A stretch of 64,000 nt of DNA from Bacilli bacterium. GTDB taxonomy: Bacteria > Bacillota > Bacilli > RF39 > UBA660. Below the pieces are notes generated by a model. That model worked only from the letters and a program-made list of their open reading frames with translations, was not told where the DNA came from and made no database searches. Shown here piece after piece: positions 2,224 through 43,105 of this stretch. The stretch's first letter is position 1, and every line of letters starts with the position of its first letter. The position numbers and the translations under genes were made by a program. The stretch spans positions 129,486 through 193,485 of the forward strand of contig JAFXSE010000003.1 in the NCBI GenBank assembly GCA_017525855.1, given 5' to 3'.

Positions 2224-2225
2224 TT

Positions 2226-2264: not shown

Positions 2265-2287
2265 CTACGGTTGACTCGAACTTAAAA

Positions 2288-3934: not shown

Positions 3935-3936
3935 AT

Positions 3937-4477: not shown

Positions 4478-4499
4478 AAAGATTTCTCCTTTTTTCTAT

Positions 4500-4515
4500 T
4501 ATATAGTACTAGAAG
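4500..4515 (-). promoter_or_regulatory. Phage-type promoter motif CTTCTAGTACTATATA
   Basis: Minus-strand CTTCTAG, then TACTATATA, with the motif start 38 bases before the ATG at 4477. It overlaps the last codons of the upstream 62-residue gene, so it would start a new transcript for thioredoxin-GroES-GroEL. Confidence 0.5.
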
Positions 4516-15844: not shown

Positions 15845-15865
15845 AGAGAGGGCTAATTTATAAAC

Positions 15866-16915
15866 ATGAAAATACTATTTTTTAGTGATATTCACTTTCA
15901 TCATACACATCGGTTTTCTCATATAACTCCAGATGGTATGACTATTCGTGAACAAGAACATTTATCATGTGCAGATACTATAATTAAAATCTGTAAAGAA
16001 GAAAATATAGATAGAATTGTATTTGGTGGAGATGCTTATGGTCCAGTTGGCGATAACATTTCATGTCAAACACAATATGTAATTTGTAAATTTTTTGAAA
16101 AATTACAATCCACTAATCTTCCAATAGATATTGTTGTAGGTAATCATGATTTATTGCTTGACACTATTAATAATAGAGAAGCTCACAAATTAATTCCGTT
16201 TAAAAATTGGGAGAATATCAATGTTTATGACATGCCTTGTATTATTACCGATTATCATTTTATATATATGCCTTACAATATATGTGATGAATATAATACG
16301 TCGTTTTTAGAAAATATAAAAAATAAAAATGAATATACTATTTTTTCACATTTAGAAATTCAGGGTATACACTTAGGAAATGGTATATTTACAAAAAAAG
16401 GAGTAGATATTGATCTTTTAAAAGAATTTAGAATGACTTTACAAGGTCATTATCATTCTGGAGGTAGTTTAGCAAAAAATATTCAGATATGTGGGTCAAC
16501 ACAAAGGTTATCGTTTAAAGATAAAGGTACAGCTAGAAATAATATCATAATTTATAATACAGAAACGAATAAAATAGAGAGAAAAAGTTTTGAATGTCCA
16601 GATTGGTTAATTTTTACAGATGATAATTTGGATGATTTCTTAAAAATAGATAATAATAACTATGTAAAATTAGAATTATCTAGTGATATTTTATTAACAA
16701 AAGAAATTCAAAATAAATTAAACCAAGTAAAAGATAAAGATGTACATATTGATTTGGAAAGAATTTCAATAAATAAAACAATAGATACAGAAATTGAAAG
16801 AGAAGATGATATAAGTGTTATGAAACAATTTGTAAATAATTCAGAAAATACAGATGAGTTTAAAGAAGCACTTATCGATGAAGGTGTTAGATTATATAAT
16901 AAAGTTACAAAATAA
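15866..16915 (+). CDS. 47: Recombination endonuclease subunit gp47 (SbcD/Mre11-like nuclease)
   Basis: 349 residues with the Mre11 phosphoesterase signature: FFSDIHFHHTH at residue 4, FGGDAYGPVGD near 52 (GGD), VGNHDL near 91, SHLEIQG near 160 and LQGHYHSG near 192. The C-terminal part is the capping and Rad50-binding region. It follows its gp46 partner directly, as in T4-like phages. Expected to be a Mn-dependent 3'-5' exonuclease and endonuclease acting with gp46. Confidence 0.95.
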   Translation: MKILFFSDIHFHHTHRFSHITPDGMTIREQEHLSCADTIIKICKEENIDRIVFGGDAYGPVGDNISCQTQYVICKFFEKLQSTNLPIDIVVGNHDLLLDTINNREAHKLIPFKNWENINVYDMPCIITDYHFIYMPYNICDEYNTSFLENIKNKNEYTIFSHLEIQGIHLGNGIFTKKGVDIDLLKEFRMTLQGHYHSGGSLAKNIQICGSTQRLSFKDKGTARNNIIIYNTETNKIERKSFECPDWLIFTDDNLDDFLKIDNNNYVKLELSSDILLTKEIQNKLNQVKDKDVHIDLERISINKTIDTEIEREDDISVMKQFVNNSENTDEFKEALIDEGVRLYNKVTK

Positions 16916-26343: not shown

Positions 26344-26391
26344 ATATTAATTGTTTAGTGTTCATATATTCTTTTATTTATAAAAAATCAA

Positions 26392-26410
26392 GTTCAAATA
26401 GTATATATGA
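26392..26410 (+). promoter_or_regulatory. Phage-type promoter motif GTTCAAATAGTATATATGA
   Basis: GTTCAAATAG followed by TATATATGA, starting 56 bases before the ATG of the giant adhesin chain at 26448. A weaker related sequence (GTTCATATATT) lies about 35 bases further upstream. Confidence 0.5.
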
Positions 26411-26447: not shown

Positions 26448-29400
26448 ATGTTAGGTGGTACCAATAGTAATAGTCAATTAATTAAAAATTTGGATGTCAC
26501 ATTAACCGAAAATGGTACTTTCGTATCTGGTGAAGATTATACTGGATTTGGTACAGTTACTGTTGCTGTGCCACCTGATGTTATGGATACCGAATTATCT
26601 ATAACTCCTACTGCTACAGATGTTATTACAATTCCTACATGGGATGAATATACTGGTCCTTTTACTGATCCAGTAACAGGTACTGAATATGCTGGTGCAG
26701 GTAATATTAAAGTAAGACGGATTAGTTCTTGGATTGACTCAAATATTTCTGCTGATAATATTCGTAAAGGACAAACAATTTTAGGTGTTTCTGGTAATGT
26801 TATTGAATTATTACCGCAAACTAAAACTACTAAGTCTACAACAACGCAATTTACAATTTATCCTGATTCTGGTTATAATGCATTATCTTCTGTTACAGTT
26901 AATCCATTAGTATTACAAGATGTTACTCATGTTACTCCAAAAAGTTATTCAGTAACTGTATATAAAGGATCTGGTTATGATGGTATGAATTCAGTCCAGA
27001 TTGATGCTGTTACTGCGGCTGTAGATTCAAATATTCGGCCAGAAAATATTAAGAAGAATGTTACAATTTTAGGTGTACGCGGTACATATGATAATTATGT
27101 AGCTCCTGTGGTTCAACCTACTACTGTTTCACCTACTACTTCTGAACAAATTCTTACACCTCCTTCTGGAGTTGATGGATTTAATAGAGTTGCTGTAAAT
27201 GCAGTTACATCAGCTATTGATGCAAATATAAAACCAGAAAATATCAAGCGCGACGTTGAAATTTTAGGTGTAATTGGTACATATCGTATTGAAAATTTAC
27301 AAGATAAAACGGTTGATCCTCAGCAATATATTCAAACAGTTACTTTTGATTCTACTCTTGGATATGAGGGTTTAAATTCAGTTACTGTTAATCCTGTTAC
27401 ATCTAGTGTGGATAGTAATATTAGAGCAAGTAATATTAAAAAAGATGTAGTTATTTTAGGTGTAACTGGTGAATATGATCCACAACCAGTTATTCAAGAT
27501 CCAGTTACTATAAATCCAGATGTATTGGCTCAATCTGTTACTCCTGATCTTGGATATGATGGTTTAAGTAGAGTTAATATAAATGCAGTAACTGCTAGTA
27601 TTGACGCTAACATATTAGCTGAAAATATTAAGAAAAATATTAGTATTTTGGGTGTAACTGGTGAATATGAAGGTATTCAGCCTAATTATCAAGAATCAAA
27701 AACTGTTCAACCAGTAACCTCTGGTGATATTGAGGTTACCGCAGATCCAACATATGATGCTTTATTAAAAGTTATAGTAAAAGCTGTAACTGCTTCTATT
27801 GATCCAAATATTATGCCAAAGAATATTCGAAAAAATATTAGTATTCTTGGTGTATTGGGTACAATGGAAGAAGGTGGTGAACAAAAATGGTTTGATTTTT
27901 CAGGAATTCAAAACTTTGTTGAATTAAATCAAGATGCTTGGAGTGAAGGTGGTAATGAAACGATTTCTATTGTCGGTAATAGAAATAATTATGAATTAGA
28001 AAACTTTATTAATGAAACATTTCCGGGTATTGAAAATATTAATGCTGTAATGTTTACACAAGTATATGGTTATGATGATGAAGAAATAACTGATGATAAA
28101 GTTACAGAATGCTATATAAACTTTATTGGTGGAAGTTTATATATGGAATATTCAAAAATTACTAATATTCCAGATCAAATTCGTTATTTTTATCCATTTA
28201 TAAATGATTACGGCATTAATGGTTTAACCATGAATTTAGCATATGATGATGGTTTAGCCAGAACTATGAAATTATATGTACTTACAGATTCTACAAGAAC
28301 TTATCAGCCTGTACCTGTTTTAGTTACTGATAATATGGATAGTAGTTTATTACCGGCAGGTTATGATGATTTTAGATTTGTTAAAAATATAAGTATACCT
28401 GCACATGATGTATTTATACCAAAAGTTAAAGCTAACGATAATATTCAATTTGTATTACGAGATGAAGATGCTGTAAGAACAAGACTCTTAGAAACTGCAA
28501 ATCAGCCAGATATTATTGAAGTTAGCGCTTATGATAGAAATTATGATAATATAGATTTAGAAACTAATATTATCGGTAGTTATAAATTAAAAGATTATAC
28601 AAATCTTATTTGTGATCCAACAACTTATGTAGCCAAACAAAGAGTTTATGGTGAAACTGGATATATTAAAATACCAGGTACAGTTGAAAAGAAAAATGGT
28701 TATGTGTATTATTTTAAATTTAAACCAATGGATTATACTGGATATAATAACTATTTTACTTTATTTGATTGTAATAATTTATTTAAATTAGGTTTATACC
28801 GGCCTTATAACTACGGATATTATTATATAGGATATGTATATAATTGGACTTCTGCTACAGGTGGTAGTTGGACAACGTCTAATACATTATATACTGGAAA
28901 TACATATTGGTTTAGAGTACGTGTTAGTGGTACAACTACAGGATTAGATCTTTCAACAAATGGTTATACTTGGACAAATTTTGCTAATGTAAGTAGCTCT
29001 TATATTAATCCAACAAATACAAATGATATCACAATATATTCATTAGCCGGAATTAATAATGATTTATTTACAGATGAAATATATATTACTGATTCATCTG
29101 GAAATAAAGTTTATTCAGTTTTGGATCCAATATATATTAATAAAACAAGTCATGAAATAGTTGATAGAGATAATAATAATATATTAGAAGTTAGAGATGA
29201 GTCAAGAAAAGGTATATTATATCAGGGTAACGAAATAACAAATTATGATACGTATGATATTTCTAATAATTTATTAGATTTAGGTACTGACGGATATATT
29301 GAATTACAAGATGGTTTTAAAACAGGTGGTAAAACTTGGGAAATTTGTCAACATTTTAGATTACCATCAATTACTTCTAGTGCGGGTAGACATTTAGTAT

Positions 29401-31208
29401 CTTGGGCAGTATCTGAAAGTAATGATAGACGAAATTGTTTATGGATAGATACTAGTCATTGTATTTGTTGGCGTGTATATAATGCAACTAATTCTGCATT
29501 AATTGATGGTAGAATAAATAGTACAGCATTAACTGTAGGAAATAGTTACTATATTAAGTATGGTTGGGATGGTTATCGTTATTATATGTATTGCTCAACA
29601 AATGCTAATTTTACAAACATCGTATCAAGTTATACTTATGATAATACTAATTCAACTTATGCTGAAGGTTCAAAACTTTTAATAGGTAACTGGAATAAAG
29701 CACATACAACAGGATCAGTAAGGTTTTTATACTTAGATAATTATACTCAGATTAGATTAGGAAATGAAATTGTATGGAAGTCACAAACAGAAAGCTTATA
29801 TGGTAATTTAGTAAATTATACTGATGATGGTTCTCCTATTACTTTAGATGCATATTTGGCTCAAAAAGATGGATATACTCCATATAAAGATATTTCAACA
29901 TTTGGGTCTCCAACTATATCAAATACAGGAATTATAAGTAATTTAAATAGAGGAAATTATATTTGGTATAATAAAAAATCTTTTTCATTAAATAATAATT
30001 TTGAAATATATACTAAGTTTATGTTTACCTCAACATATAGTGATTGGCGATTAATTTTAGCATCTTACAAAGAATGGGGTTGGAATTTAGGAGTTAATTC
30101 TGAATCTAAATTACATTGGAATGTTGGTAATGGAGCTGGAACTTGGTCAAATGGTATAACAGGTACTGAAGTATTAAATCTTAATACCTGGTATTATGTT
30201 AAACTTATAAAAACAGGAACAACATCTTATTTATATCACTCTACAGATAATGAAACATGGGTATTAGATGGTTCAGTTTCATATAGTACAGGTATCTCTA
30301 ATTATATGACAGTCGGTACAAAAGGTTTATCTTATGGATGTGAAAATCTTTATATAGACTTAGTAAATACATATATTAGATCTGGAGATGAATTATATTG
30401 GCAACCACAAATATATAATGTATCTAAAGAGAGTACAAATACTAAATTATATAATATCCCACTTCTTTCAGATGAACAAACTAATATAAGCAAATTTAAT
30501 AAACAATATATTGAGGCTTTAATACCATTTAAACCAGAAAATAATACATGGGAAATTTGTACAAAATATAAATTTAACAGTTTATTTGGCTGTTTATTTG
30601 GTAATGGTTTTTATGGTGAAGAAAAGAATATAAGATTTTGTGCATTTTTAGAATCTGATGGTTCAACATGGCTTGGATTAAGTTCAGATGGTGAATCTTG
30701 GAATATTTGTGATCAAATACTTACTGATCATATTTTAGATATAAATACTTGGTATTGGTTTAAGTTAAGTTTTGATGGAACTCATTATAAATTTATGTAT
30801 TCTACAGATAATACAGCATGGACTGAATTAGCTGATATAGAAGATTCAACACCTATTTATGATATTGAAGATAATATTATATTTGGTACAAATCCATATG
30901 TAAAAGTACAGTCTACAAATATTGATGGTTTTGTAGATCTTAATGAAATGTATTATAAGATTGATAATACTTTAATATGGCAACCTACTTTTAGAGTATT
31001 ACAAGATTATGATTGGGTATTTACACAAGATTCTAATTGGTCATATACAGGTTTAACAAATCTTGGTAAAAAAGGTGAATTAATAGTTCCAGAGCATAAT
31101 ATTTATGAATGGGATCAGTTACTAATGAGATGGAGAGGATTAAAGCAGTTAACATTTAACTTAGATGATCCTGATGGAATTTTATATACAAAAGTAATAG
31201 AAAATTAA
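26448..31208 (+). CDS. Giant multi-domain tail adhesin, first subunit of the split-domain chain
   Basis: 1586 residues. Order of parts: an N-terminal TENGTF/YTGFGTVTV attachment module (1-45); six ILGV repeats of roughly 65 residues (about 90-475), each with an xIDxNIxxxNIKKxxxILGVxG core; a unique beta region with SIPAHDVF near 660; about four LamG/concanavalin-like lectin modules (about 740-1555), each with a TWEIxxxF strand, a WYWFKLSFDG-like strand and an ending WQP; and a final IVPEH coupler. The last 20 residues (LTFNLDDPDGILYTKV) look like the first half of a PEGA domain, completed at the start of the next gene. It probably binds host surface glycans. Own promoter upstream; GGAAG site. 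Confidence 0.75.
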   Translation: MLGGTNSNSQLIKNLDVTLTENGTFVSGEDYTGFGTVTVAVPPDVMDTELSITPTATDVITIPTWDEYTGPFTDPVTGTEYAGAGNIKVRRISSWIDSNISADNIRKGQTILGVSGNVIELLPQTKTTKSTTTQFTIYPDSGYNALSSVTVNPLVLQDVTHVTPKSYSVTVYKGSGYDGMNSVQIDAVTAAVDSNIRPENIKKNVTILGVRGTYDNYVAPVVQPTTVSPTTSEQILTPPSGVDGFNRVAVNAVTSAIDANIKPENIKRDVEILGVIGTYRIENLQDKTVDPQQYIQTVTFDSTLGYEGLNSVTVNPVTSSVDSNIRASNIKKDVVILGVTGEYDPQPVIQDPVTINPDVLAQSVTPDLGYDGLSRVNINAVTASIDANILAENIKKNISILGVTGEYEGIQPNYQESKTVQPVTSGDIEVTADPTYDALLKVIVKAVTASIDPNIMPKNIRKNISILGVLGTMEEGGEQKWFDFSGIQNFVELNQDAWSEGGNETISIVGNRNNYELENFINETFPGIENINAVMFTQVYGYDDEEITDDKVTECYINFIGGSLYMEYSKITNIPDQIRYFYPFINDYGINGLTMNLAYDDGLARTMKLYVLTDSTRTYQPVPVLVTDNMDSSLLPAGYDDFRFVKNISIPAHDVFIPKVKANDNIQFVLRDEDAVRTRLLETANQPDIIEVSAYDRNYDNIDLETNIIGSYKLKDYTNLICDPTTYVAKQRVYGETGYIKIPGTVEKKNGYVYYFKFKPMDYTGYNNYFTLFDCNNLFKLGLYRPYNYGYYYIGYVYNWTSATGGSWTTSNTLYTGNTYWFRVRVSGTTTGLDLSTNGYTWTNFANVSSSYINPTNTNDITIYSLAGINNDLFTDEIYITDSSGNKVYSVLDPIYINKTSHEIVDRDNNNILEVRDESRKGILYQGNEITNYDTYDISNNLLDLGTDGYIELQDGFKTGGKTWEICQHFRLPSITSSAGRHLVSWAVSESNDRRNCLWIDTSHCICWRVYNATNSALIDGRINSTALTVGNSYYIKYGWDGYRYYMYCSTNANFTNIVSSYTYDNTNSTYAEGSKLLIGNWNKAHTTGSVRFLYLDNYTQIRLGNEIVWKSQTESLYGNLVNYTDDGSPITLDAYLAQKDGYTPYKDISTFGSPTISNTGIISNLNRGNYIWYNKKSFSLNNNFEIYTKFMFTSTYSDWRLILASYKEWGWNLGVNSESKLHWNVGNGAGTWSNGITGTEVLNLNTWYYVKLIKTGTTSYLYHSTDNETWVLDGSVSYSTGISNYMTVGTKGLSYGCENLYIDLVNTYIRSGDELYWQPQIYNVSKESTNTKLYNIPLLSDEQTNISKFNKQYIEALIPFKPENNTWEICTKYKFNSLFGCLFGNGFYGEEKNIRFCAFLESDGSTWLGLSSDGESWNICDQILTDHILDINTWYWFKLSFDGTHYKFMYSTDNTAWTELADIEDSTPIYDIEDNIIFGTNPYVKVQSTNIDGFVDLNEMYYKIDNTLIWQPTFRVLQDYDWVFTQDSNWSYTGLTNLGKKGELIVPEHNIYEWDQLLMRWRGLKQLTFNLDDPDGILYTKVIEN
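26719..27860 (+). repeat. Six protein-level tandem repeats with an ILGV core
   Basis: Copies begin near 26719, 27004, 27200, 27394, 27583 and 27781, with a period of about 65 codons after the first. Each holds an xxxxDxNIxxxNIKK segment and an ILGVxG turn. The DNA differs between copies, so this is an old repeat array, not a recent tandem duplication. Confidence 0.8.
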
Positions 31209-31222
31209 AGTGGAGATAATCA

Positions 31223-33493
31223 ATGACATCTAAAGTAATTCAAACTTTTACTGGAAATGATGTATATTATAAAGTAATTAAAGATGGTTATAAAACTATA
31301 ACGGAAACTATTCATGTTACAGATAGTATGCCTACTCGTAATGTTTATAATTTAGAGCCATCTGCTATAGTACATGATCCTGAATTAGATTATACAGTTG
31401 ATACTTCACATGATTATCCTCCAGTTATTACATTCAATGAAAATGTAGTAACTCCCGATGATACAGAAATTACAACTAATAAATATGTTTTAGCTCCTTA
31501 TGGACAAAATTATATATTAACAGATGGAGGTAATACTGAGGATAATTTTAGTAGAATTGGTAATGTTCAAGTAAATAAAGATGGTATAGCAAGTGGATTT
31601 TCTACAATAAATTGTATTCGACTTTTGGAAGCTTTTAATCCTGGTAACAATCCTTGGGAGATTATTTTTAAAATTAAAACAAGTGGTGATGTGACAACAA
31701 ATCAATCGATTTTTGGAAATTATGGAGCTTCTTATCAAAACTCGCCACAAATAAATATAAATGAAAGTCATTTTAGTATTTATATTCCAACTAATCCTAT
31801 ATCAAGTTCATTTCTTATTAATAAGACAGGTACATATACAATAATACCTAATACTTCATATTGGTTGAAATTATTTTTTAATGGAACTTCTTATGGTTTA
31901 GATTATTCATTGGATGGTCTTTTATTTATCAGTGATATATCAGAGAGTAGTTCAGTTGCAATTGGAGTTGCTGATGAAGGTTTTTACATTGGATATAATT
32001 ATTACTCATCTTCTAGTACTCAATATTTTCAAGGTTCAATAGATTTATCAGAAACTTATGTTAAAATAAATAATGAAATCTGGTGGCAACCGACTTGGAA
32101 TAGTTTAGCTCTTAAATATATACCAAACGGGAATATTGAGGTAAATAGTAATGGAGTTGCTAAAAATTTTTCTACAAGTAACTATATTAAAATATTTAGT
32201 TTTCAACCAGAAAGTTTACCTTGGAAAATAACTACACAAGTTTATTTAACACAATGGGTTGATAGCTCATCTATTTTTGGACAAAGTGGAGAATATTCTA
32301 TACCACAATTATATGTAAATGGCTCGGGTTATTTACTATTATGGATTTCTTCAAACGGTAGTTCTTGGAATATAGCTAGTGGTGTAACTTCGAGTAGAAC
32401 TATTTCAAGAAATACTTGGCATACTTTAGTTTTAGAATTTACAGGATCTAGTTATAGAGTTTTAGTAGATAATGTTGTATATATTACAGTAACTAATTCA
32501 AATAAACTTTATAGAAATAATAAACCTTTATGTTTAGGTTTTGACGAAAGTACTTATTTTAGAGGTAATATTTGGTTAAAAAACACTACCATTACTTATA
32601 ATAATTCTACAGATAATACTTTTACATGGAAATATAGAGGATTAAAAACCATAAATAGCAATATTATCGGCGAGCCTATTTTTAGTTATGATGAAAAATT
32701 CATGCGTGGGTTTAATGCTTCAAATTATTTTACTAAGAGTATTGATTTAAGTAATTATACTTCTTTTGAAATTTATATGAAGATTCTTACTCCAAATAAT
32801 ACTGATACAAATGGTGCATTCTTTTCCAATAATACTACAGGAGCATCACCACTTAGACGAGATGGAACAGCATTAACTTCTTGGAGTTCACAACAATATA
32901 TTGGTACATATCAAATGGCTAACAATACTACTCATTGGATAAAAGGTTATTCTAATGGTACTACTTGGTACTTGTATGGCAAAGCCGATGAAGGTGAAAC
33001 TTTAGAAGAAGTTATGAATAGTGAAAATTGGATTTTATCTGGATCTTGTCCAGCATCATATATGGTTTCTTCTACAGTAAATAATTTTATTTTCGGAAGA
33101 AATACAGATACATATAGCACTCAATATTTTACAGGAAGTATTTATACTGATGATATTTTAATTAAAAAAGATGGAAATATTATTTTTACTAATGTAACTA
33201 TATTAGGTGAGGAGGTTCCTGGTATTTTAGATTCTAATTATTTAGATACCGGTGATCAAGTTACTTTAAATTTATATGATGTTGAAACAGTTGATCGTAC
33301 ATTAATTTTAAATGATAATAGAGATGTAACCGTTCCAAATAAACAATATGTAGAATATGATGGTGAAGTTGAAATTCCAGAACATGGTTTATCTATATAT
33401 GATCCAGAAACTTATTCATGGTCTAAATATAGAATTATTACATTAAATGTAAATGATGAAGATACAGGTATTTATACAGAAGGTAATATTTAA
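31223..33493 (+). CDS. Tail adhesin, second subunit of the split-domain chain
   Basis: 756 residues. The start (MTSKVIQTFTGNDVYYKVI, then KDGYKTITETIHV) is the second half of a PEGA domain; its first half is at the end of the preceding gene. Then come about three LamG-like lectin modules (near residues 110-295, 310-455 and 480-650; hallmarks NPWEIIFKIKT, LPWKITTQVYL, SFEIYMKIL and a WWQPTW ending). The C-terminus has an IPEHGLSIYDPETYSW coupler and again a PEGA first half (ITLNVNDEDTGIY). The gap to the previous gene is 14 bases with GGAG. No enzymatic motif. Confidence 0.75.
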   Translation: MTSKVIQTFTGNDVYYKVIKDGYKTITETIHVTDSMPTRNVYNLEPSAIVHDPELDYTVDTSHDYPPVITFNENVVTPDDTEITTNKYVLAPYGQNYILTDGGNTEDNFSRIGNVQVNKDGIASGFSTINCIRLLEAFNPGNNPWEIIFKIKTSGDVTTNQSIFGNYGASYQNSPQININESHFSIYIPTNPISSSFLINKTGTYTIIPNTSYWLKLFFNGTSYGLDYSLDGLLFISDISESSSVAIGVADEGFYIGYNYYSSSSTQYFQGSIDLSETYVKINNEIWWQPTWNSLALKYIPNGNIEVNSNGVAKNFSTSNYIKIFSFQPESLPWKITTQVYLTQWVDSSSIFGQSGEYSIPQLYVNGSGYLLLWISSNGSSWNIASGVTSSRTISRNTWHTLVLEFTGSSYRVLVDNVVYITVTNSNKLYRNNKPLCLGFDESTYFRGNIWLKNTTITYNNSTDNTFTWKYRGLKTINSNIIGEPIFSYDEKFMRGFNASNYFTKSIDLSNYTSFEIYMKILTPNNTDTNGAFFSNNTTGASPLRRDGTALTSWSSQQYIGTYQMANNTTHWIKGYSNGTTWYLYGKADEGETLEEVMNSENWILSGSCPASYMVSSTVNNFIFGRNTDTYSTQYFTGSIYTDDILIKKDGNIIFTNVTILGEEVPGILDSNYLDTGDQVTLNLYDVETVDRTLILNDNRDVTVPNKQYVEYDGEVEIPEHGLSIYDPETYSWSKYRIITLNVNDEDTGIYTEGNI

Positions 33494-33511
33494 GTATAAG
33501 GATTTAAAAAT

Positions 33512-36500
33512 ATGACACAAAAAACTATTAAAGCTTTATATAAACAACCAGTAAATTATAAGCTTACGAAAGATGGTTATAAAACTATAAATGGGGTTAT
33601 ACATGCACAAGATGGTATGCCTAAAGTAGTTGATTTACCAGTACCTTCTGAATTATATACAACTGATTTACAATATAATGTTGATACAGAAATAAATGGC
33701 GCACCAATTATAACAACTGAGTCATTTACATTACCTGATAATGAAATTTGTGAAGCTAAAGAATACTGTTATGCTCCTAAAGGAAATACTTATGATTACA
33801 GATCAAAAAAAGAAGTTGAATATAGTTACATTAATACGGCTAGTTATACTGTAGTTGGAAGTCCAACCATTGATACAACTTCTGGGATAATTACAAATTT
33901 TTCAAATAGTAACTATTTAATAACTGGAAATAGTCCTTCTGGTACTGTTAACTCATATGAAGTAGTATTGAAATTTAAAACATCTTCATTCGATGATGGA
34001 AGACTTATTGGAAATTATGCAAGTAATATACATAGTATACAGGTAGAAGTACCAAATAGTAATGAAAACAAAATGTGGTGGGGTCATCCATCTTCAGGTT
34101 ATTCATGGCAAGCAATAAATCCAAATTATGTTATTGAACCAGACACTTGGTATTGGGTAAAAGGTGTTTATAATAGTAGTACATCAAAACTAATCGTATA
34201 TATGCATAAAGAAAATGAAGATTATATTAATTGTGGTGAGTTAGATGTAACAGGATGTGGTTGGAATGAAGACATTGAAATAGGATGTGATCAAGGAGGA
34301 GGTGGAGCTACTGGAGCATATATAGATCTCTCAGAATCTTATATTAAAATAAATGGTAGCTATTGGTGGAAACCATGGATTAGAGAAACCAAAATTGAAG
34401 AAGTAATAACGCAAATACCAGGAATTCTTGATTCTTCGGTTACAACAGATGATTGGCAGCAAAATCAAGAATATAAATTATATCAATTAAAAAATCAAAA
34501 TAATACTGATACATTACAATTAACAGAGAATAATATTACAGATACAACTCAAAAATATAAGCAATATATTAATCAATTAACAATTCCAGCTAGAGACTAT
34601 AAATGGTATTACAACGGTATACCACAATCGGTATATACTAATTTTTATAATCAAGGAGCTACAATTAATAATAAAATTGCAGTAAATTTTACCGGTGGTC
34701 CTATTATGCTATATCCATTATATCATATGGTTTATGATACTAGTAATATATGTATGTTTATGAATATTGAAACAGGTAATATTACTCAAGATTGTATATT
34801 ATTAAGTTTTTCACGAAATTTATCTGAATCTGTAACATTACCTGTATTTGCTATAAAAAATAGTAAATTAGCTTTGCTTAGTAATACAAGTCCTACAGAT
34901 ATTACATATGGTAGTAGTACATTAACATCATATACTAAATATTGGATAGCTCTTGCCGTAAATTTTAATACTTTAGTTTGTGATATGTATTTAATTACTG
35001 ATAATAATTATACAAATAAAACATTACCGAGTATTTCTTCTTGGACAAAAGAATTGACATTTGAAGGAGATAGTCCTGAAATGTTTTATGCCGAATTAAT
35101 GTTAGGTTTTGATGTTTTAAATATTGGATTAAATAGTTTTACAGGCAAAGTATATTTAGATAATTTATGGGCAAGAAATAATTTAGATTCTTCATATACA
35201 CAAATTGTTTGGCAAGCTTATAGTTATTATAATTATATTTATTACTGGATGGCAAATAAGTCATTATATAATTATAATATTAATGAAGATTATGGTAATA
35301 TTTTAGATTTTTCAGATTCATATGTAAACGTTGCTCAAGATCAATTTTATAAATACAAGAATTCTGAAGTATTTTTAATGCCAATAAATGGTGGTGAAAT
35401 AATAAATTATTATTCTGCAAATGGTATTTTAAGTGGTACTGCTTATGTAGATGAATTAACAGGTATTATGAGTAATTGTAATCCGACTAATTATCTTACA
35501 TTACCTGAGGCTTTTTTACCAGAAAATAATCCATGGGAAATAAATTTAAAAGTTAAAACACCAGATACAATGGATGCAATGCATTATATTATGGGTAGCT
35601 TAAATAGCTATTACTGGACTGTAGGCGGAGAATTAAGTGTTAATAATACATTTGGTTTTGGTATTACTTCTACTGGTGAAAGCTGGGATATTGCATGGTT
35701 AGCGGGAAATACTGTTGCAACTTCAGATACTTGGTATTGGATTAGATTAAGTTTTACTGGTACAGAATATAAATTTGAATTAAGTACTGATGGTGAAACT
35801 TATAATTTAGAAGCTTCTGTGGCAAATACCACTTCTATTTATCAAAACTCTACAAATAGTATTATTCATTTAGGTACACAAGCTACACATTATACATATT
35901 GGACAGGTGAAATTGATTTATCACAATGTAATATTAAAATAAATAATGTTATTTGGTGGAATGGTGTAAATATAACACAAGCCCATAGATATTTAAAAGA
36001 AGTTACTAAAGAATCTGTTAATTATGATAATTTCGCTAATCTACCTACAACTTTAATTGACAATGCTAATTTTATAATTAGCAACAATAAAATTACAAAT
36101 GGTCCTACTAGTTATCATGTTCAGAGTGCTACATCATATGGATATTTTGCTTTTACACCTACTGAAACTAAAACGGTAAGTATAAAAGCATATATTAGTT
36201 CAGAGGATTGTTGTGATTGGGGTGCATGTTATATAGGTACAAAAATATATAGGCCAACACATGATCAAATATTAAGTCAAACAACTGATGGTTATGGGGT
36301 ATATTTATTTGCTATTCATGGAAGTACTTCAGAAACGACTTACACTTATACATTACAAGCTGGAACAACTTATTATATCAACTTTTACTATACTAAAGAT
36401 CATAGTGTAGACGGAGGTGATGATAGACTATATATTACTCAATTAAGAGGTTTTGTAGGTACACAAGTAGAAATTATAAATTTACCTGGTTGTTTGTATA

Positions 36501-36787
36501 ATTATAATGATGAAGGACAAGAGCACCAATTTGATGTATATTATGATGCTAATTATACACAACCTATTTTAGTAAGTACCGGCGAAACATATTCTGGTGG
36601 TACTAAAGTAGACACTATAACTATTCCTGCACATAAAACATGGAATTATCAGACAGGCGGTAATTGGTTACCTATTACATATGTAGATACAACAACAAGT
36701 AATTATACTTATGAAGATGGTAATCTAGTTCTAACAGAATATACAGGTAATGAAACTGATGTAATTTTACCTAATGCGGTATTATAG
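33512..36787 (+). CDS. Tail adhesin, third subunit of the split-domain chain
   Basis: 1091 residues. The start (QPVNYKLTKDGYKTINGVI) completes the PEGA domain begun by the preceding gene. About three LamG-like modules follow (hallmarks VNSYEVVLKFKT near residue 148, a divergent copy near 395, and NPWEINLKVKT near 675), then a unique region with SVSIKAYISSED-like strands near 890, an IPAHKTWNYQ coupler near 1045, and a final segment with LVLTEYTGNETDVILP. That last segment is the N-terminal cap of a BspA-type leucine-rich repeat domain, whose body starts the next gene 11 bases later. Confidence 0.75.
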   Translation: MTQKTIKALYKQPVNYKLTKDGYKTINGVIHAQDGMPKVVDLPVPSELYTTDLQYNVDTEINGAPIITTESFTLPDNEICEAKEYCYAPKGNTYDYRSKKEVEYSYINTASYTVVGSPTIDTTSGIITNFSNSNYLITGNSPSGTVNSYEVVLKFKTSSFDDGRLIGNYASNIHSIQVEVPNSNENKMWWGHPSSGYSWQAINPNYVIEPDTWYWVKGVYNSSTSKLIVYMHKENEDYINCGELDVTGCGWNEDIEIGCDQGGGGATGAYIDLSESYIKINGSYWWKPWIRETKIEEVITQIPGILDSSVTTDDWQQNQEYKLYQLKNQNNTDTLQLTENNITDTTQKYKQYINQLTIPARDYKWYYNGIPQSVYTNFYNQGATINNKIAVNFTGGPIMLYPLYHMVYDTSNICMFMNIETGNITQDCILLSFSRNLSESVTLPVFAIKNSKLALLSNTSPTDITYGSSTLTSYTKYWIALAVNFNTLVCDMYLITDNNYTNKTLPSISSWTKELTFEGDSPEMFYAELMLGFDVLNIGLNSFTGKVYLDNLWARNNLDSSYTQIVWQAYSYYNYIYYWMANKSLYNYNINEDYGNILDFSDSYVNVAQDQFYKYKNSEVFLMPINGGEIINYYSANGILSGTAYVDELTGIMSNCNPTNYLTLPEAFLPENNPWEINLKVKTPDTMDAMHYIMGSLNSYYWTVGGELSVNNTFGFGITSTGESWDIAWLAGNTVATSDTWYWIRLSFTGTEYKFELSTDGETYNLEASVANTTSIYQNSTNSIIHLGTQATHYTYWTGEIDLSQCNIKINNVIWWNGVNITQAHRYLKEVTKESVNYDNFANLPTTLIDNANFIISNNKITNGPTSYHVQSATSYGYFAFTPTETKTVSIKAYISSEDCCDWGACYIGTKIYRPTHDQILSQTTDGYGVYLFAIHGSTSETTYTYTLQAGTTYYINFYYTKDHSVDGGDDRLYITQLRGFVGTQVEIINLPGCLYNYNDEGQEHQFDVYYDANYTQPILVSTGETYSGGTKVDTITIPAHKTWNYQTGGNWLPITYVDTTTSNYTYEDGNLVLTEYTGNETDVILPNAVL

Positions 36788-36798
36788 AGGATAAATAA

Positions 36799-37611
36799 AT
36801 GACTGGATTTCCTGGGTTACAAAGTATAAAAGTTGCAAATACTTATTTTCAAAATTGTATAACCGTAGTTAATGTGAATTTTAATGGATTGAGTTATACA
36901 AATAATGATGCATCATATGCTTTTACAAATTGTACTAATTTGAGCGATACTGTAACTTTACCTAATAATGTTACAAATATGTCCTATAGTTTTGGAAATT
37001 GTACAAGTTTTAATACAATTCCTACTATTCCAGATAGTGTAATTAATATAGCTCATAGTTTTGATGGTTGTATTAATATATCTGGAGATTTGTATATTTC
37101 AAATCCAAATATTACAAATGCGACTAATTGTTTTATAAATACTACATCTGATAAAACAATACATATTCCATATTATTTTGCAAATAAAGTACATACACCG
37201 ACATATAATTCATTTTATGCAGCTGGTTATGGAGAAGATGTAACAAATAGACAGCATGGTGTAATCTTAACAGATGATAGTACACGCACATTAACATTTT
37301 ATGCCAATACTCAAAATTGGGCTGCGTATGTAACGACAAGTTTATCTCAGATAAATGCTTCGAATAATGTATATCCTGAAATTATAGGTCAAACTCTTAC
37401 ATATCATGCATTTCAGCCTGGTTATGAAACTATTGGTGAAACTATATCTGTAACGGAAAATAGAGTAATCAATATACCAGCAAATGAAGGAAATTTAGAA
37501 GAAGTAGATTTATCACTTTATAATTATACAATAACAAATAATGTTGCTTACGTTAGTAAATATAATAGTACAACAACAACTATAACATTACCTAGTACAA
37601 CTACAAGATAG
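36799..37611 (+). CDS. Tail adhesin, fourth subunit: LRR body, PEGA domain, LRR cap
   Basis: 270 residues. The first about 115 residues are BspA-type leucine-rich repeats (YAFTNCTNLS, YSFGNCTSF, HSFDGCINIS), lacking their own N-cap, which is at the end of the preceding gene. Residues about 165-235 are a complete PEGA domain (LTFYANTQNWAAYV, then FQPGYETIGETISV). The last 30 residues (YTITNNVAYVSKYNSTTTT then ITLP) are another LRR N-cap, completed by the start of the next gene. The gap to the next gene is 16 bases with GGAG. It is the smallest link in the chain. Confidence 0.75.
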   Translation: MTGFPGLQSIKVANTYFQNCITVVNVNFNGLSYTNNDASYAFTNCTNLSDTVTLPNNVTNMSYSFGNCTSFNTIPTIPDSVINIAHSFDGCINISGDLYISNPNITNATNCFINTTSDKTIHIPYYFANKVHTPTYNSFYAAGYGEDVTNRQHGVILTDDSTRTLTFYANTQNWAAYVTTSLSQINASNNVYPEIIGQTLTYHAFQPGYETIGETISVTENRVINIPANEGNLEEVDLSLYNYTITNNVAYVSKYNSTTTTITLPSTTTR

Positions 37612-37627
37612 AATTTGGAGTAAATAA

Positions 37628-40600
37628 ATGACTGAATCTGTAAAACAAGTATTATATCGTACAAATTCATTTTCTAATAATAAAAACATTACAAGTGTTA
37701 ATTTAAATAATGCAACTTTTGTTAATGGTAACATGTTTAATGTTTTTAGTAATTGTACAAATCTTACTTCTGTTTCGAATATAGGTAATAGTACAGTAGA
37801 TATGGCATATACTTTTGTAAATTGTAATAAATTAACAAGTGTAGGTCAATTGCCAAATAGTGTAGTAAATATGTATAATACTTTTTATAATTGTAGAGCT
37901 TTATCTACTACACCTGTATTACCTAATGCTGTAAAAGTTTTGACTAATACTTTTTACTATACAAATATAAATACTACACCAGATATTCCAAATTCTGTTA
38001 CTTCATTAGATAATACTTTTAGAGGTTGTTATAATTTAACAACTATTACTCCTCTTCCAGATACAATTCAATATATGTATGGTACTTTTGCATATTGTAA
38101 TAAATTAACTAGTATTCCAGCAATTCCACCCAAAGTTACTAATTTGGCTAGTACATTTGTTGGATGTAATGGATTTACTAATGTTACTGTTCCAAATACA
38201 ATATCTGAATTATCATATACTTTTCAATACTGTAATAAGTTAACAACAGTTACTATTCCTGATTCCGTAACTAGTATGTATGGAACTTTTAGTAGGTGTA
38301 AAAGTTTAGTAACTCCGCCGACTATTCCAAATTCTGTTACATCAATGGGAAGTACTTTTTCATATTGTACTGGTTTAAGTAGTTATCCTGTTTTTCCAGA
38401 GCATATTACAGGTTTTCAATATATGTTCCAAGGATGCACTCAATTTACAACATTTTATCAATTACCTGCTAACGCTACTTATATATATGGAATATTTAGT
38501 GGATGTAGTAATATGGCAGGTTCATATAATATTCCTTCTACCATTGAGCGTGAAATGGGATACGCTTTTAGTGGATGTAGTAAATTAACTGGATCAATAA
38601 CTGTTCCAGAAAAAGTTGTTGATTGTTATAGTAGTTTTCAATCTTGTACAAATTTAAGTGAGGTAATATTTAACTGTAATAATACTTGTTTAAATTACTG
38701 TTGTAATGGTTGTACAGGTTTAACTGATGTAACTTTTAATTGTAATCATATAAATAATACTTGGTATGCTTTTAGAAATTGTAATAATTTGCGTAATGTT
38801 TCTGGTTGCATAAATAGCGGTAATATTGGTTGGATATTTCAAAATTGTCAGAATTTAACTAATTGCAATTTAGTTTTAGGTGATATTCATAATGGATCTT
38901 TAGCTTTTTCTAGTTGTATTAATCTAGAAAATCTTAATATGACAATAAATTCAGTAAATAATGCTGCAAGCTTTTTTTCAGGTTGTTCAAAATTAACTTC
39001 ATTTATTGATATACCTGGTGCTGGAAATTTAGATAGTGCCTATGAATATGTATCTATACCGACAACACCTCCAAATATTGCAAATACTGTTAAAAATTTA
39101 TCTTTTACTTTTGGATCATGTACAAATTTAACAGATATGCCAAATTTAACAAATTGTACTAACTTAACTATTATGAGTTCAGCATTTTATAATTGTACAA
39201 ATCTTGTAAATATTACAACTATTCCAAATAGTGTTACTGATATGTATGGTACATTTGCTAATTGTATAAGTTTAACAAGTGTACCTGTTATACCAGAAAA
39301 TGTTGGTCGAATTGATGATTTATTTCGAAATTGTACAAGTTTAACTGGAAATATTTATATTAGATCAGATAAAGCAAATATGATGTATGATAGAGCTTTT
39401 ACAGGTACATCATTACAGAAGAATGTTTATATTCCATATACATATAACAATGGTGTTCATACAATTGTATATAATTCATTTATTAATTATTCCTATGATG
39501 AAAATGGTACAACAGATGGAGTATATTTAAAACCAGGGTTTATGTATCTTAATATGTCATTACCTACAAATAGTACATTATATATAAACGGTGAAGTTGT
39601 AACAAATGCTCAGCAATTAACACTTAAAGAAGATACAGATTATGTTTTAATAAAAGAAGGGTATGTACCATATACAAAACATATTATATATCAAGAAGGA
39701 ATAACTACAGATAGTATTGTAGATGCTGATTTATCTAATAATGGTGTAACTTTAACAATTAATCCAACACAAGCTGATGTAATTATTGAATTTACATATT
39801 TAGGCATGACTTCTGTTGCAAATAGCTGTATGGTTGCAAGTGGAACTCAAGTCACATATAAAGTTAAAAAATCAGGTTATAAAAAAGAAATTCAAACAGT
39901 TACAGTAACTGAAGATACTACAATAACTGTAACATTAGAAGAATCAGAAATTCCGACAACTCCTGGAAGTAGAATTGGTAATATAGCAACTGTTGTTGGT
40001 ACTTTTATAGATAATTCTGGTAAATCTTATGTTTATGCTGTATTAGATTCTATTTATCGTGATTTAAATGCTCCAGATTATTTACCTATGAAAGATTTTG
40101 ATCCAGAAGAATATCATGGAACACCTCCTAATTTACCTATGTATGGGGAATATACATATAATGCAACATATATGACAACAAACGGTAATATAGAATCAGC
40201 AACACATAATACTGATGTAATGATAGATTATTATAAAGATTATAATCCATATGATTCAGAATATTATAGATTAAATCCAGAGGAAATTCCTGATTTAGAT
40301 GAAAGTTATTACTATGAAACTATTTATCATATAGCAAGAAATGCTGCGGTAGTAACGTTAGATGGTGAACGATTTGAATCTCAATTACCAAATACATATG
40401 AATTAAATCAAATTTGGCAAAATAAAGCTGTCTTGGATGGATATGATCCAACATTATTAGAAGATTCTTCACAGTCTTTGACTAATGTATTTGATGAAAA
40501 TAGAGAAAATTTACGTGTTTGGTCATCTACATTAGGTGAAGCTTTCTATGAAATAAAGTTGTGGGGAGTTTGTAGACGTTGGGATGATCCAATAGAATTA

Positions 40601-40663
40601 ACAGTAAGCTGGGCCCAAGGTAATGGTAGAGTAGTTCCAATTTTTGAAATTCCTTTAGATTAA
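37628..40663 (+). CDS. Tail adhesin, terminal subunit: BspA-type LRR solenoid, two PEGA domains, Lcl/DUF1566-like tip
   Basis: 1011 residues. Residues 1-about 635 are a long BspA-like solenoid with some 20 repeats of the type TFxNCxxLTxxxxIPxSVT. Two intact PEGA domains follow (about 638-700 and 705-775); the second contains LGMTSVANS at the point where the split copies have their stop/start. The last about 230 residues resemble an Lcl/DUF1566-like C-type-lectin tip (YVYAVLDSIYRD, then LPNTYELNQIWQNKAVLDG, then WSSTLGEAFYEI). The first LRR cap is at the end of the preceding gene. Likely the host-contacting end of the fibre. Confidence 0.75.
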   Translation: MTESVKQVLYRTNSFSNNKNITSVNLNNATFVNGNMFNVFSNCTNLTSVSNIGNSTVDMAYTFVNCNKLTSVGQLPNSVVNMYNTFYNCRALSTTPVLPNAVKVLTNTFYYTNINTTPDIPNSVTSLDNTFRGCYNLTTITPLPDTIQYMYGTFAYCNKLTSIPAIPPKVTNLASTFVGCNGFTNVTVPNTISELSYTFQYCNKLTTVTIPDSVTSMYGTFSRCKSLVTPPTIPNSVTSMGSTFSYCTGLSSYPVFPEHITGFQYMFQGCTQFTTFYQLPANATYIYGIFSGCSNMAGSYNIPSTIEREMGYAFSGCSKLTGSITVPEKVVDCYSSFQSCTNLSEVIFNCNNTCLNYCCNGCTGLTDVTFNCNHINNTWYAFRNCNNLRNVSGCINSGNIGWIFQNCQNLTNCNLVLGDIHNGSLAFSSCINLENLNMTINSVNNAASFFSGCSKLTSFIDIPGAGNLDSAYEYVSIPTTPPNIANTVKNLSFTFGSCTNLTDMPNLTNCTNLTIMSSAFYNCTNLVNITTIPNSVTDMYGTFANCISLTSVPVIPENVGRIDDLFRNCTSLTGNIYIRSDKANMMYDRAFTGTSLQKNVYIPYTYNNGVHTIVYNSFINYSYDENGTTDGVYLKPGFMYLNMSLPTNSTLYINGEVVTNAQQLTLKEDTDYVLIKEGYVPYTKHIIYQEGITTDSIVDADLSNNGVTLTINPTQADVIIEFTYLGMTSVANSCMVASGTQVTYKVKKSGYKKEIQTVTVTEDTTITVTLEESEIPTTPGSRIGNIATVVGTFIDNSGKSYVYAVLDSIYRDLNAPDYLPMKDFDPEEYHGTPPNLPMYGEYTYNATYMTTNGNIESATHNTDVMIDYYKDYNPYDSEYYRLNPEEIPDLDESYYYETIYHIARNAAVVTLDGERFESQLPNTYELNQIWQNKAVLDGYDPTLLEDSSQSLTNVFDENRENLRVWSSTLGEAFYEIKLWGVCRRWDDPIELTVSWAQGNGRVVPIFEIPLD

Positions 40664-40699
40664 AACTTATAAATGAAGGGTTTTATAGTAAAAAATTAA

Positions 40700-40714
40700 G
40701 TTCAAATACATATG
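40700..40714 (+). promoter_or_regulatory. Phage-type promoter motif GTTCAAATACATATG
   Basis: GTTCAAATACATATG, starting 48 bases before the ATG of the beta-helix gene at 40748. It resembles the 26392 copy in having GTTCAA. Confidence 0.45.
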
Positions 40715-40747: not shown

Positions 40748-43105
40748 ATGTCAGTTTTACAATTTAATGGGAATGAATATAATATTTTATATATTGATGC
40801 TAATATAGGTGCAAATGTGGGTGATGGATCTACTCCTGCTACTGCTTTAGCAAATATTCCAGCTACTCTTACAGATAAAACTTGTTATATTGTAAGAAGA
40901 CAAGAAGATAATGAGGTTACATATGTAGATTTACCACAATCTTGGTATGATTCATTATATTATATTATGTTTTTAGGTATGCCTAAAGCTGATGACCCAT
41001 TGTATAATTTTATGGAAGCTGATGCCAAAACTCTTTGGGGTAATGATACAGGTAAATATGCACGTATTAGATGTAATATGAGTTCATATACCAATGTAGA
41101 TAACTGGAGTGGTGATAATTTTAATGATACAAATAATAAAACATTATTAAAAACTAATAGTATTAGAAATTTTTATGCAGCAAATTGCTATTTTTATAGA
41201 GATGGTAATGGGGGTGCTCAAAGTTCTAATGCTAACCAATTTGGTTATATGTTTGCTTTTGATTATGGTTCAAGATTTGCAGATGTAACTTTTAATAATT
41301 GTAAATTTGGTTATACACAATATAATTTTGAAAATGATGATTATATTGCAAATAATACTGATATTTCTACAGATACTAGTAAATATCCTCAATATAAATG
41401 TCAAAGTTATATAGGTATTCAAAATTGTAATACATTTACTATGAATGGCTGTATAATTAATCATGTTTGGACAGCAGCTTATGGTACTAGTTATGCATAT
41501 TATTTTACGCGTGGAACAGCTAAATGTATAAGAATGCGTAATTTAAATAAATTTATATTTACAAATAATCAATATAATGTTTTATATAGAAACGGCTATA
41601 ATAATACAGATGCTGTTTATGAAAATACAAATAATATTGTATTAAACGATGGCAATACTGGGCAAGAGTCGTATAATAATGGTTCTCAAAGAACAAAAGC
41701 AATAGTAAAAAATATTGAAATAAATAGAATTTATACAGCAACCGGTGCTAGAATAGATGCTCAAAATTTACGTGTAGATGTAGCAGATTTATTAGTAAAT
41801 AACGTACACATTAATCATAAGGTTATGCATAACGGTAGGCTTACTAGTTGGAATTTTAATGAAGCTAATGGGTCTTTTTTAGAATTTGAAGGATATAATA
41901 GTTTAAATGTTTCTGAAATTTATGCAGATTTTACAGGATCAAATATTAATAGTGCTCGTGTTTTAAAATTATATTCTGATAACAATACGGTTGGTAATCC
42001 TAAAGATTTTTGTAGAGATATATATATTAAAATGGATCCAGTTGGAACATTAAATATGGGTGGTTCAATTGTTGATTTAATAAGATCATATTATATGCTT
42101 AATAATACTACTAGTATTGAAAATGTTGATAGAAATAATGATTGGGATATCTATGGCTATCATGCAAATATGACAGAAAGTTCAATAGTTAATAATATTG
42201 TTGTTGAAGCTGAAAATACAACAAATTATGCTATTTATTGTGAAAGATTTGGTTTTAAATCACCTTTTGTAAAAGGTAGGGTATATTTAGGTAATTCAAC
42301 AGCAGATATTAAAAAACATTATAATAAAATATCTACAAGTACTGGGGCTCTTGTTTATGGTAGTAGCTATTATAAATGTGATGATTATGAGGCTAATTTA
42401 GAATATCCAAATTATAACGGTACTACACAAATTGCATGGCAACCTAATGGAAGATCATCTGTATATATTAACAAATCAAATTGTATTTTATATAATGAAA
42501 TGCCAACTACAAGTATTTATTTAGCTAGTTCAAATAATTCGTTTGTTTGTCCAAACTATATAAAAACTGGTCAATTTTTCCAAAGAAATGAAGTATGTTT
42601 TTGTAAATCTTGGAATACTGTAAGAACAGGATCTAATTCACAAGGTTCACTTAGATTTAATAATAATTATGCTGGGATTAATAATAACTCTTATCCATTA
42701 ATTGTTGGTCATGAACCTTATTCTGGTATTCAAATTGTACCAAATTCTATAGGTAAAAAGATTTTAACGGCTTATATGGCGCATAAAAATATGGATGCTT
42801 CTGAATTAGGCTATATCAATCGTATTGGTATTCATGTTATTTGTCCAGAAAAATATACAGATTATTTTGATAATGAAAAAATAAATACAAGACATCATGA
42901 GTTTGTTTCTGAAGCAGTTGGTTGGGAACCTGATACATCTACATGGTCTGGCGATACTAACTTACGTACTTATAAATGTGAAATACCAATTGAAGTATAT
43001 ACTTTAGAAGATCCTATTGATGTTAAAATTTGGTTTAACTGGTATTCTGTAAATGGATATGTATATGTTGATCCAGACTTTAAATTAAGAGATGTTGTTG
43101 AATAA
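40748..43105 (+). CDS. Right-handed beta-helix tailspike-like protein
   Basis: 785 residues. The N-terminus has YIDANIGANVGDGSTPATAL, the GDGSxPATAL entry strand common to pectate-lyase-fold tailspikes, then repeated short strands rich in Asn/Tyr with FNNC and MNGC turns (residues 150-650), as in parallel beta-helices. The C-terminus forms a beta domain with YKCEIPIEVYTL near the end. A clear catalytic triad cannot be picked by eye; such proteins may be depolymerases or binders. It has its own promoter and terminator, so it is a single-gene unit after the split-domain chain. Confidence 0.7.
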   Translation: MSVLQFNGNEYNILYIDANIGANVGDGSTPATALANIPATLTDKTCYIVRRQEDNEVTYVDLPQSWYDSLYYIMFLGMPKADDPLYNFMEADAKTLWGNDTGKYARIRCNMSSYTNVDNWSGDNFNDTNNKTLLKTNSIRNFYAANCYFYRDGNGGAQSSNANQFGYMFAFDYGSRFADVTFNNCKFGYTQYNFENDDYIANNTDISTDTSKYPQYKCQSYIGIQNCNTFTMNGCIINHVWTAAYGTSYAYYFTRGTAKCIRMRNLNKFIFTNNQYNVLYRNGYNNTDAVYENTNNIVLNDGNTGQESYNNGSQRTKAIVKNIEINRIYTATGARIDAQNLRVDVADLLVNNVHINHKVMHNGRLTSWNFNEANGSFLEFEGYNSLNVSEIYADFTGSNINSARVLKLYSDNNTVGNPKDFCRDIYIKMDPVGTLNMGGSIVDLIRSYYMLNNTTSIENVDRNNDWDIYGYHANMTESSIVNNIVVEAENTTNYAIYCERFGFKSPFVKGRVYLGNSTADIKKHYNKISTSTGALVYGSSYYKCDDYEANLEYPNYNGTTQIAWQPNGRSSVYINKSNCILYNEMPTTSIYLASSNNSFVCPNYIKTGQFFQRNEVCFCKSWNTVRTGSNSQGSLRFNNNYAGINNNSYPLIVGHEPYSGIQIVPNSIGKKILTAYMAHKNMDASELGYINRIGIHVICPEKYTDYFDNEKINTRHHEFVSEAVGWEPDTSTWSGDTNLRTYKCEIPIEVYTLEDPIDVKIWFNWYSVNGYVYVDPDFKLRDVVE

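What the first reader, a model, noticed from the sequence alone, without database searches (positions are those of the whole stretch)
26448..40663. Adhesin chain whose domains are split across four consecutive gene boundaries
Seen: the genes at 26448, 31223, 33512, 36799 and 37628 (4714 residues in total) are joined in the same way. Junction 1: one gene ends LTFNLDDPDGILYTKVIEN and the next starts TSKVIQTFTGNDVYYKVI, continuing KDGYKTITETI. Junction 2: ITLNVNDEDTGIY, then QPVNYKLTKDGYKTINGVI. Each pair together makes one PEGA domain. Junctions 3 and 4: LVLTEYTGNETDVILP, then the LRR body at 36799; VAYVSKYNSTTTTITLP, then the LRR body at 37628. Each pair makes one BspA-type LRR domain (N-cap plus solenoid). 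All four downstream genes start with MT, all have a Shine-Dalgarno, and gaps are 11-18 bases. An intact PEGA copy in the 37628 protein (near residue 715) has LGMTSVANS at the same point, as if it were a fused version of the junction. Inference: the halves complement each other between subunits, like donor-strand exchange, giving an ordered fibre whose assembly sequence is set by matching half-domains. I know of no described phage fibre built this way.
Basis: partly seen in the sequence, partly recalled or inferred. Interest (0 to 1): 0.9.

Follow-up and report, generated by a model that had tools for sequence, protein, structure and literature searches.

The report
Phage adhesins joined by split domains
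Five neighbouring phage genes seem to encode a chain of adhesin proteins in which each gene boundary cuts a protein domain in two, so that the end of one protein probably completes the start of the next.

Summary
Five + strand genes (26448-40663, 4714 aa, gaps 14/18/11/16 nt, Shine-Dalgarno and ATG at each downstream start) have boundaries inside domains. Genes 2 and 3 begin part-way into a PEGA-like domain: their first ~40 residues match only its second half (hhalign 95% and 76%; controls at most 3%). The tails of genes 1 and 2 fall on the missing first half, but their score is no better than controls; only placement supports them. Tails of genes 3 and 4 score above all 181 controls against N-caps of intact BspA-type LRR proteins, and genes 4 and 5 carry LRR repeats near their starts. 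Two divergent phage contigs keep both PEGA splits with other reading-frame offsets, so recoding is unlikely. Tail type fits the next gene in 11 of 12 adjacent pairs examined; the misfit is an LRR gene without upstream cap. Best explanation: the tail of each subunit completes the first domain of the next (donor-strand-like, between different proteins), giving an ordered adhesin of lectin-like and LRR modules, open to module exchange. Complex formation and virion location were not tested. Probability about 0.6.

The parts
26448..31208 (+). gene 1, 1586 aa: N-terminal tail-protein-like repeats, then bodies with only weak ConA-like hits; ends with a candidate first half of a PEGA-like domain
31146..31205 (+). 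junction 1 tail (last 20 residues of gene 1), candidate PEGA strands 1-2
31209..31222 (+). 14-nt gap with Shine-Dalgarno
31223..33493 (+). gene 2, 756 aa: second PEGA half, laminin-G/ConA-like domains (two matched within residues 103-471, a likely third by eye), terminal small domain, candidate first PEGA half
31223..31357 (+). junction 1 head (first 45 residues of gene 2): second half of a PEGA-like domain
33431..33490 (+). junction 2 tail (last 20 residues of gene 2), candidate PEGA strands 1-2; no strand assigned in the monomer model
33494..33511 (+). 18-nt gap with Shine-Dalgarno
33512..36787 (+). gene 3, 1091 aa: second PEGA half, lectin-like bodies, ends with an LRR N-cap half
33512..33646 (+). 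junction 2 head (first 45 residues of gene 3): second half of a PEGA-like domain
36698..36784 (+). junction 3 tail: BspA-type LRR N-cap half
36788..36798 (+). 11-nt gap with Shine-Dalgarno
36799..37611 (+). gene 4, 270 aa: LRR repeats recognisable from about residue 38, ends with an LRR N-cap half
37504..37608 (+). junction 4 tail: BspA-type LRR N-cap half
37612..37627 (+). 16-nt gap with Shine-Dalgarno
37628..40663 (+). gene 5, 1011 aa: long BspA-type LRR body (LRR_5 E=6.6e-47; phrog_9915 from residue 18), intact PEGA copy, C-terminal part without a Pfam match
39749..39940 (+). intact PEGA copy in gene 5 (residues 708-771)

Best explanation
The five genes encode separate subunits of one linear adhesin made of different proteins. 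At each boundary the C-terminal strands of subunit n supply the missing first half of the N-terminal domain of subunit n+1: strands 1-2 of a PEGA-like sheet at junctions 1 and 2, the N-cap hairpin of a BspA-type LRR at junctions 3 and 4. This works like donor-strand complementation, but between different, co-encoded proteins, so that gene order becomes subunit order. Short SD-containing gaps let neighbouring subunits be made side by side. Because the conserved ends act as connectors, the bodies between them can be exchanged. Shown: split positions, half-domain homology (PEGA heads strong; LRR-cap tails fair; PEGA tails weak), conservation, tail/next-gene fit. Inferred: physical pairing, specificity, virion location, receptor binding, polarity.
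For: Heads: hhalign 95% (gene 2 family, residues 2-35 to columns 28-61 of 74) and 76% (gene 3 family, 4-42 to 30-68); the first half is absent. Tails: gene 1 family aligns to columns 11-22, gene 2 family to 11-26, so tail and head tile the domain without overlap; 0 of 167 control blocks aligned in that place with a score of 9.6 or more, 3 of 167 aligned there at all. LRR caps: tails of genes 3 and 4 score 16.9 (probability 12.5%) and 22.2 (60%), pooled 25.0 (76%), against intact caps; best of 181 controls 12.0. Register: Tyr-Lys at residue 16 in 23 of 23 gene-2 and 38 of 38 gene-3 homologues (the 38 include the window's own protein and those of L001 and L002, and the 23 were picked partly by this head); it is at residue 18 in L001's gene 2. 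No internal, fused copy of the motif in 119 proteins. Conservation: L001 and L002 (gene 2 32% and 42%, gene 3 36% and 34% identical) keep both PEGA splits, gaps 15/18 and 15/17 nt, with SD. Fit: 11 of 12 adjacent pairs agree in tail and next start (6 PEGA-PEGA, 2 cap-LRR, 3 neither-neither, by reading). The terminal small domain occurs with a PEGA half (20 of 23 gene-2 homologues), with an LRR cap (17 of 38 gene-3 homologues) or with neither, so the tail is an added part. Ends are better conserved than most of the bodies. Nearest neighbour is of the same junction in 46 of 46 distinct heads and 23 of 25 distinct tails. Gene 2 model: residues 1-12 and 737-756 have no assigned strand, as expected of unpaired halves.
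Against: PEGA-tail scores (10.8 and 9.6; 12.3 and 11.1) lie inside the control range (12.8 of 167; 12.9 of 113); 33 of 167 controls reach 9.6 and 15 reach 10.8 somewhere on the profile. In a plain score matrix the window's gene 1 tail is only in the top 3%, L002's in the top 17%, and many gene-3 tails, used as controls, do as well. The gene 2 model has pLDDT 72-90 in the tail and 86 in residues 1-10 although no strand is assigned, which I cannot interpret without coordinates. L002 has an LRR gene (2154-4676) after a gene with no cap-like end. In the six-sequence comparison the ranges overlap (heads: same junction from 64, different up to 88; tails: from 30, up to 43), and junction signatures may reflect simple orthology. 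No complex was predicted and no virion data exist.
Confidence: 0.6

Rival explanations
1. The halves pair, but homotypically: a subunit's tail completes its own head or that of another copy, giving rings or homopolymers rather than an ordered chain of different subunits.
For: Gene 2 carries both a second half and a candidate first half; tails 1 and 2 are homologous (97%), and so are heads 2 and 3 (99%).
Against: Gene 1 homologues have only the PEGA tail (18 of 18) and gene 3 homologues only the PEGA head (by reading; P0038's end is a possible exception); the gene 2 monomer model shows no strand at its own ends.
Confidence: 0.15
2. The short ends are self-sufficient or vestigial: heads are small edge sheets, LRR bodies need no cap, and tails are flexible ends, left from old gene fission, without pairing.
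For: PEGA tails are not significant by score; an LRR gene without upstream cap exists in L002; gene 4's last 43 residues have pLDDT under 50, in a model of low confidence overall (61.4).
Against: Ends are better conserved than most of the bodies; tail type fits the next gene in 11 of 12 pairs, though these pairs are related by descent; the tail is absent in 3 of 23 gene-2 homologues, so it can be lost where not needed.
Confidence: 0.17
3. The ribosome or a recoding event joins the reading frames, so the genes make one giant protein.
For: Short gaps and domains continuing across boundaries.
Against: Frame offset at junction 1 is 2 in the window and 0 in L001 and L002; at junction 2 it is 0, 0 and 2 (from the coordinates); SD plus ATG at 8 of 8 boundaries; the head motif is never internal in 119 proteins, though the length limits allowed a gene 2-3 or gene 1-2 fusion of the window's size.
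Confidence: 0.03

Closest known systems
Donor-strand complementation/exchange fibres (chaperone-usher pili, recalled; TasA of Bacillus subtilis, PMC9674648, abstract read)
   Same: A strand from one subunit completes the fold of its neighbour, giving a linear fibre.
   Different: TasA is one repeated subunit donating one strand; here five different phage proteins and two kinds of half-domain (PEGA sheet, LRR cap).
T4 long tail fibre gp34-gp35-gp36-gp37 (PMC5537660, passages read)
   Same: A phage adhesin built end to end from separately encoded subunits in fixed order.
   Different: gp34 and gp36 are trimers with a triple beta-helix in gp34; no half-domain complementation is described in the passages read.
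PEGA / Head_fiber_dimeric domains (PF08308, PF25641; crAss001 gp29, dimeric head fibre, PMC10172136, passages read)
   Same: The heads and the intact copy belong to this domain type; an intact P0068 copy matches crAss001 gp29.
   Different: There the domain is whole within one chain.
ConA-like/LamG proteins of uncultured phages (BFVD matches)
   Same: Tandem lectin-like domains as in gene 2.
   Different: Whether their domains are split at gene boundaries was not looked at.
BspA-type LRR proteins (PF13306)
   Same: Gene 5 body and the N-cap motif.
   Different: Here cap and repeats lie in different genes.

Membership tests
PEGA-like domain, split (junctions 1-2) | second half (strands 3-6, with the Y.V.K.GY motif) at the N-terminus of the downstream gene | tested here: met
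   hhalign 95% and 76%, controls up to 3%
PEGA-like domain, split (junctions 1-2) | first half (strands 1-2) at the C-terminus of the upstream gene | tested here: inconclusive
   right placement, score within control range
BspA-type LRR, split (junctions 3-4) | N-cap hairpin at the upstream C-terminus | tested here: met
   scores 16.9 and 22.2 against best control 12.0 of 181, but probability only 12.5% and 60% (76% pooled); two of the six caps were picked by eye after a failed first test
BspA-type LRR, split (junctions 3-4) | LRR repeats near the start of the downstream gene | tested here: met
   gene 4 family residues 38-70 match LRR proteins (95%); gene 5 LRR_5 6.6e-47 and phrog_9915 from residue 18; the first residues were judged by eye
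Donor-strand complementation fibre | donated strand sits in the neighbour's fold | not testable with these tools
   no multimer prediction on hand
Donor-strand complementation fibre | incomplete receiving domain in the isolated subunit | tested here: inconclusive
   gene 2 model: residues 1-12 without strand, but pLDDT about 86
Virion adhesin / tail fibre | carbohydrate-binding-type folds | tested here: met
Virion adhesin / tail fibre | present in the virion | not testable with these tools
   only location: tail sheath genes at window 60924 and close to the block in L001 and L002

The most novel reading that the evidence does not exclude
A modular phage adhesin made of different subunits in which split PEGA and LRR domains act as plug-and-socket connectors: gene order sets subunit order, and conserved connectors let whole lectin-like or LRR modules be added, lost or swapped between phages while still fitting their neighbours.
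Probability: 0.45. Interest if true: 0.85.

Novelty: new variant of a known kind. Interest (0 to 1): 0.7.

Why it matters
It would give phages a general connector for building long multi-protein adhesins and for exchanging binding modules by recombination at gene boundaries, and it would show that a domain shared with crAss001's head fibre can be assembled between chains. It also warns that domain annotation gene by gene misses domains completed by a neighbour. The claim is directly testable with predicted complexes and purified proteins.

Tried and rejected
Recoding or read-through: thought unlikely, since frame offsets differ between phages and SD/ATG are present at 8 of 8 boundaries. The intact copy's LGMTSVANS as a fused junction: not supported. 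Pfam scan of pieces: gene 2 heads gave weak PF25641 hits (E 0.01 window, 0.008 L002; the window's also LysM2_NFP 0.03), the two gene 3 heads and all five tails none. A first LRR-cap test used four database proteins that aligned badly; tails scored 13.2 and 15.9 (controls to 11.1) but not at the cap. I then trimmed the caps and added two from L010, chosen by eye. My script labels for tails were wrong for many gene 1/2 proteins and P0109; the counts 18 of 18 and 20 of 23 are by reading the tails printed. In one search the L013 copy was cut wrongly at a stop and added nothing. Contig-length pairing was too thin to decide: 5 of 20 PEGA-tailed gene-2 homologues share a contig length with a gene-3 homologue, 0 of 3 without that tail do. 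Searches without relatives of the chain: genome contigs twice, INPHARED for genes 2 and 3 and the gene 5 PEGA copy, viral contigs with single proteins; gene 5 found only LRR matches below 60% identity in INPHARED. L003 shares only a lectin-like body at 30%. In one search only residues 103-471 were well covered, so the ends of gene 2 got no structural match. Papers: 'PEGA domain' + phage + tail gave two listings, neither on phage tails by title; 'donor strand' + 'tail fiber' + phage + domain none; searches showed nothing on split domains among the titles listed (15 of 36, 6 of 6, 12 of 50, 12 of 63, 12 of 65). Passages of PMC9700779 and PMC2447325 were also seen. All this covers only the held open-access library.

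Families g1-g4 were assigned by me from id ranges and ends. P0039 and P0041 were set apart; P0044, P0047, P0051, P0052, P0055-58, P0060, P0062, P0064, P0068, P0069, P0071, P0072, P0078-80, P0082, P0084-90, P0108 and P0116-P0119 were left out of the family counts. One search used 18 of the 20 PEGA-tailed gene-2 homologues (near-duplicates P0074, P0076 dropped).

Full report
Setting. The window is part of a large phage genome: groEL, SbcCD, a DnaB-like and another helicase, glycosyltransferases and a tail sheath are encoded around the block. The gene 3 protein is known from 7 contigs, the longest 257,352 bases. No tRNA or Rfam match was found. No relative of genes 2 and 3 is in the INPHARED phage records.

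Junctions 1 and 2. I built a profile of intact PEGA-like domains: two tandem copies each from P0068 and P0051, the gene 5 copy and five crAss-like phage copies, crAss001 gp29 among them; a sixth phage copy was cut wrongly and added nothing. The N-termini of the gene 2 and gene 3 families match its second half clearly and start at columns 28 and 30 of 74. The C-termini of the gene 1 and gene 2 families align to columns 11-22 and 11-26, inside the missing first half. Their scores are weak: 10.8 and 9.6, where controls reached 12.8; only the combination of place and score is unmatched among 167 controls. With a smaller profile the result was the same (12.3 and 11.1 against 12.9 of 113). The two tail families are homologous to each other (97%), as are the two head families (99%). 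So the half-domain nature of the heads is shown; that of the tails is likely but rests on placement, homology between junctions and gene context.

Junctions 3 and 4. Gene 4 shows LRR repeats from about residue 38, gene 5 from about residue 18. A distant 245-aa LRR protein, P0115, ends in a similar cap by eye. Against this, L002 has an LRR gene after an unrelated gene without cap, so an upstream cap is not obligatory.

Relatives. Of 38 gene-3 homologues (the window's own protein and those of L001 and L002 included), all have Tyr-Lys at residue 16 and 17 end with the LRR cap; of 23 gene-2 homologues all have Tyr-Lys at residue 16 and 20 end with the PEGA half; all 18 gene-1 homologues end with it (PEGA tails counted by reading). 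L001's gene 2 has Tyr-Lys at residue 18. The motif is never internal in the 119 proteins. Where contig lengths coincide, 5 of 20 PEGA-tailed gene-2 homologues share a contig length with a gene-3 homologue, and 0 of 3 without the tail; 3 of 7 gene-4 homologues share one with a gene-3 homologue, cap-tailed in all 3. This is thin and indirect: the table gives only the longest contig of each cluster. At DNA level, two IMG/VR contigs (L001, L002) carry gene 1 - gene 2 - gene 3 followed by a homologue of the window's 40748 gene, without genes 4 and 5; there gene 3 lacks the cap. Taking the junctions of the three phages, the step from the last chain gene to the 40748-type gene in each, and the L002 LRR gene with its upstream neighbour, tail type fits the next gene in 11 of 12 pairs; the L002 LRR gene is the misfit. 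The pairs are related by descent, so this is not a significance test. A pattern scan for the head in register found only these two contigs in IMG/VR. In both, a tail sheath gene lies close downstream on the other strand.

Ends against bodies. In the gene 2 family the first 100 residues (0.70-0.71 pairwise identity per 50-residue block) and the last 106 (0.58-0.66) are better conserved than the rest (0.23-0.47). In the gene 3 family the first 100 residues (0.63-0.73) and block 1001-1050 (0.74) stand out, but so does an internal block, 301-350 (0.75), and the last block is low (0.24) because tail types are mixed; the other blocks lie at 0.13-0.55. P0041 joins a gene-2-type head to a gene-3-type end (by reading). 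This is what module exchange between fixed connectors would leave, but ordinary mosaic evolution of phage fibres would look similar.

Mechanism and standing. I judge donor-strand-like complementation between different subunits the best explanation (0.6). Isolated models fit but do not prove it: gene 2's residues 1-12 and its last 20 have no assigned strand, yet confidence there is 72-91; gene 4's last 43 residues have pLDDT under 50 in a poor model (61.4). Physical pairing, specificity and virion location remain untested. Donor-strand exchange itself is known (TasA, PMC9674648, abstract; chaperone-usher pili, recalled), so I rate this a new variant of a known kind.

Noticed in passing
26390-26400 and 40698-40708: The 11-mer AAGTTCAAATA occurs exactly twice in the window, 47 and 39 bases before the start codons of gene 1 and of the 40748 gene, flanking the five-gene block; it could be a promoter element, but with one mismatch allowed the count (5) is not above chance (7.9 expected).
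   Followed up: partly
L002:2154-4676: A BspA-type LRR gene with a glycine-rich end lies upstream of the gene 1 homologue, after a gene with no cap-like end.
   Followed up: partly
P0038 (identical to L002 gene 3), C-terminus: The end of this last chain member looks by eye like a whole PEGA-like domain, and one stretch is among the top 0.01% of windows for the PEGA first half.
   Followed up: no
L014 (crAss001 gp29): An intact PEGA-like copy from an uncultured source (P0068) matches the dimeric head fibre gp29 of crAss001 and relatives, 35 INPHARED records in all.
   Followed up: partly
40748-43105: The gene after the block is 61% and 40% identical in L002 and L001, has no Pfam match better than E 0.6, and follows the chain in all three phages.
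   Followed up: partly
2288-3934 (-), 13979-16915: The phage encodes a groEL-like chaperonin and SbcCD-like nuclease subunits.
   Followed up: no
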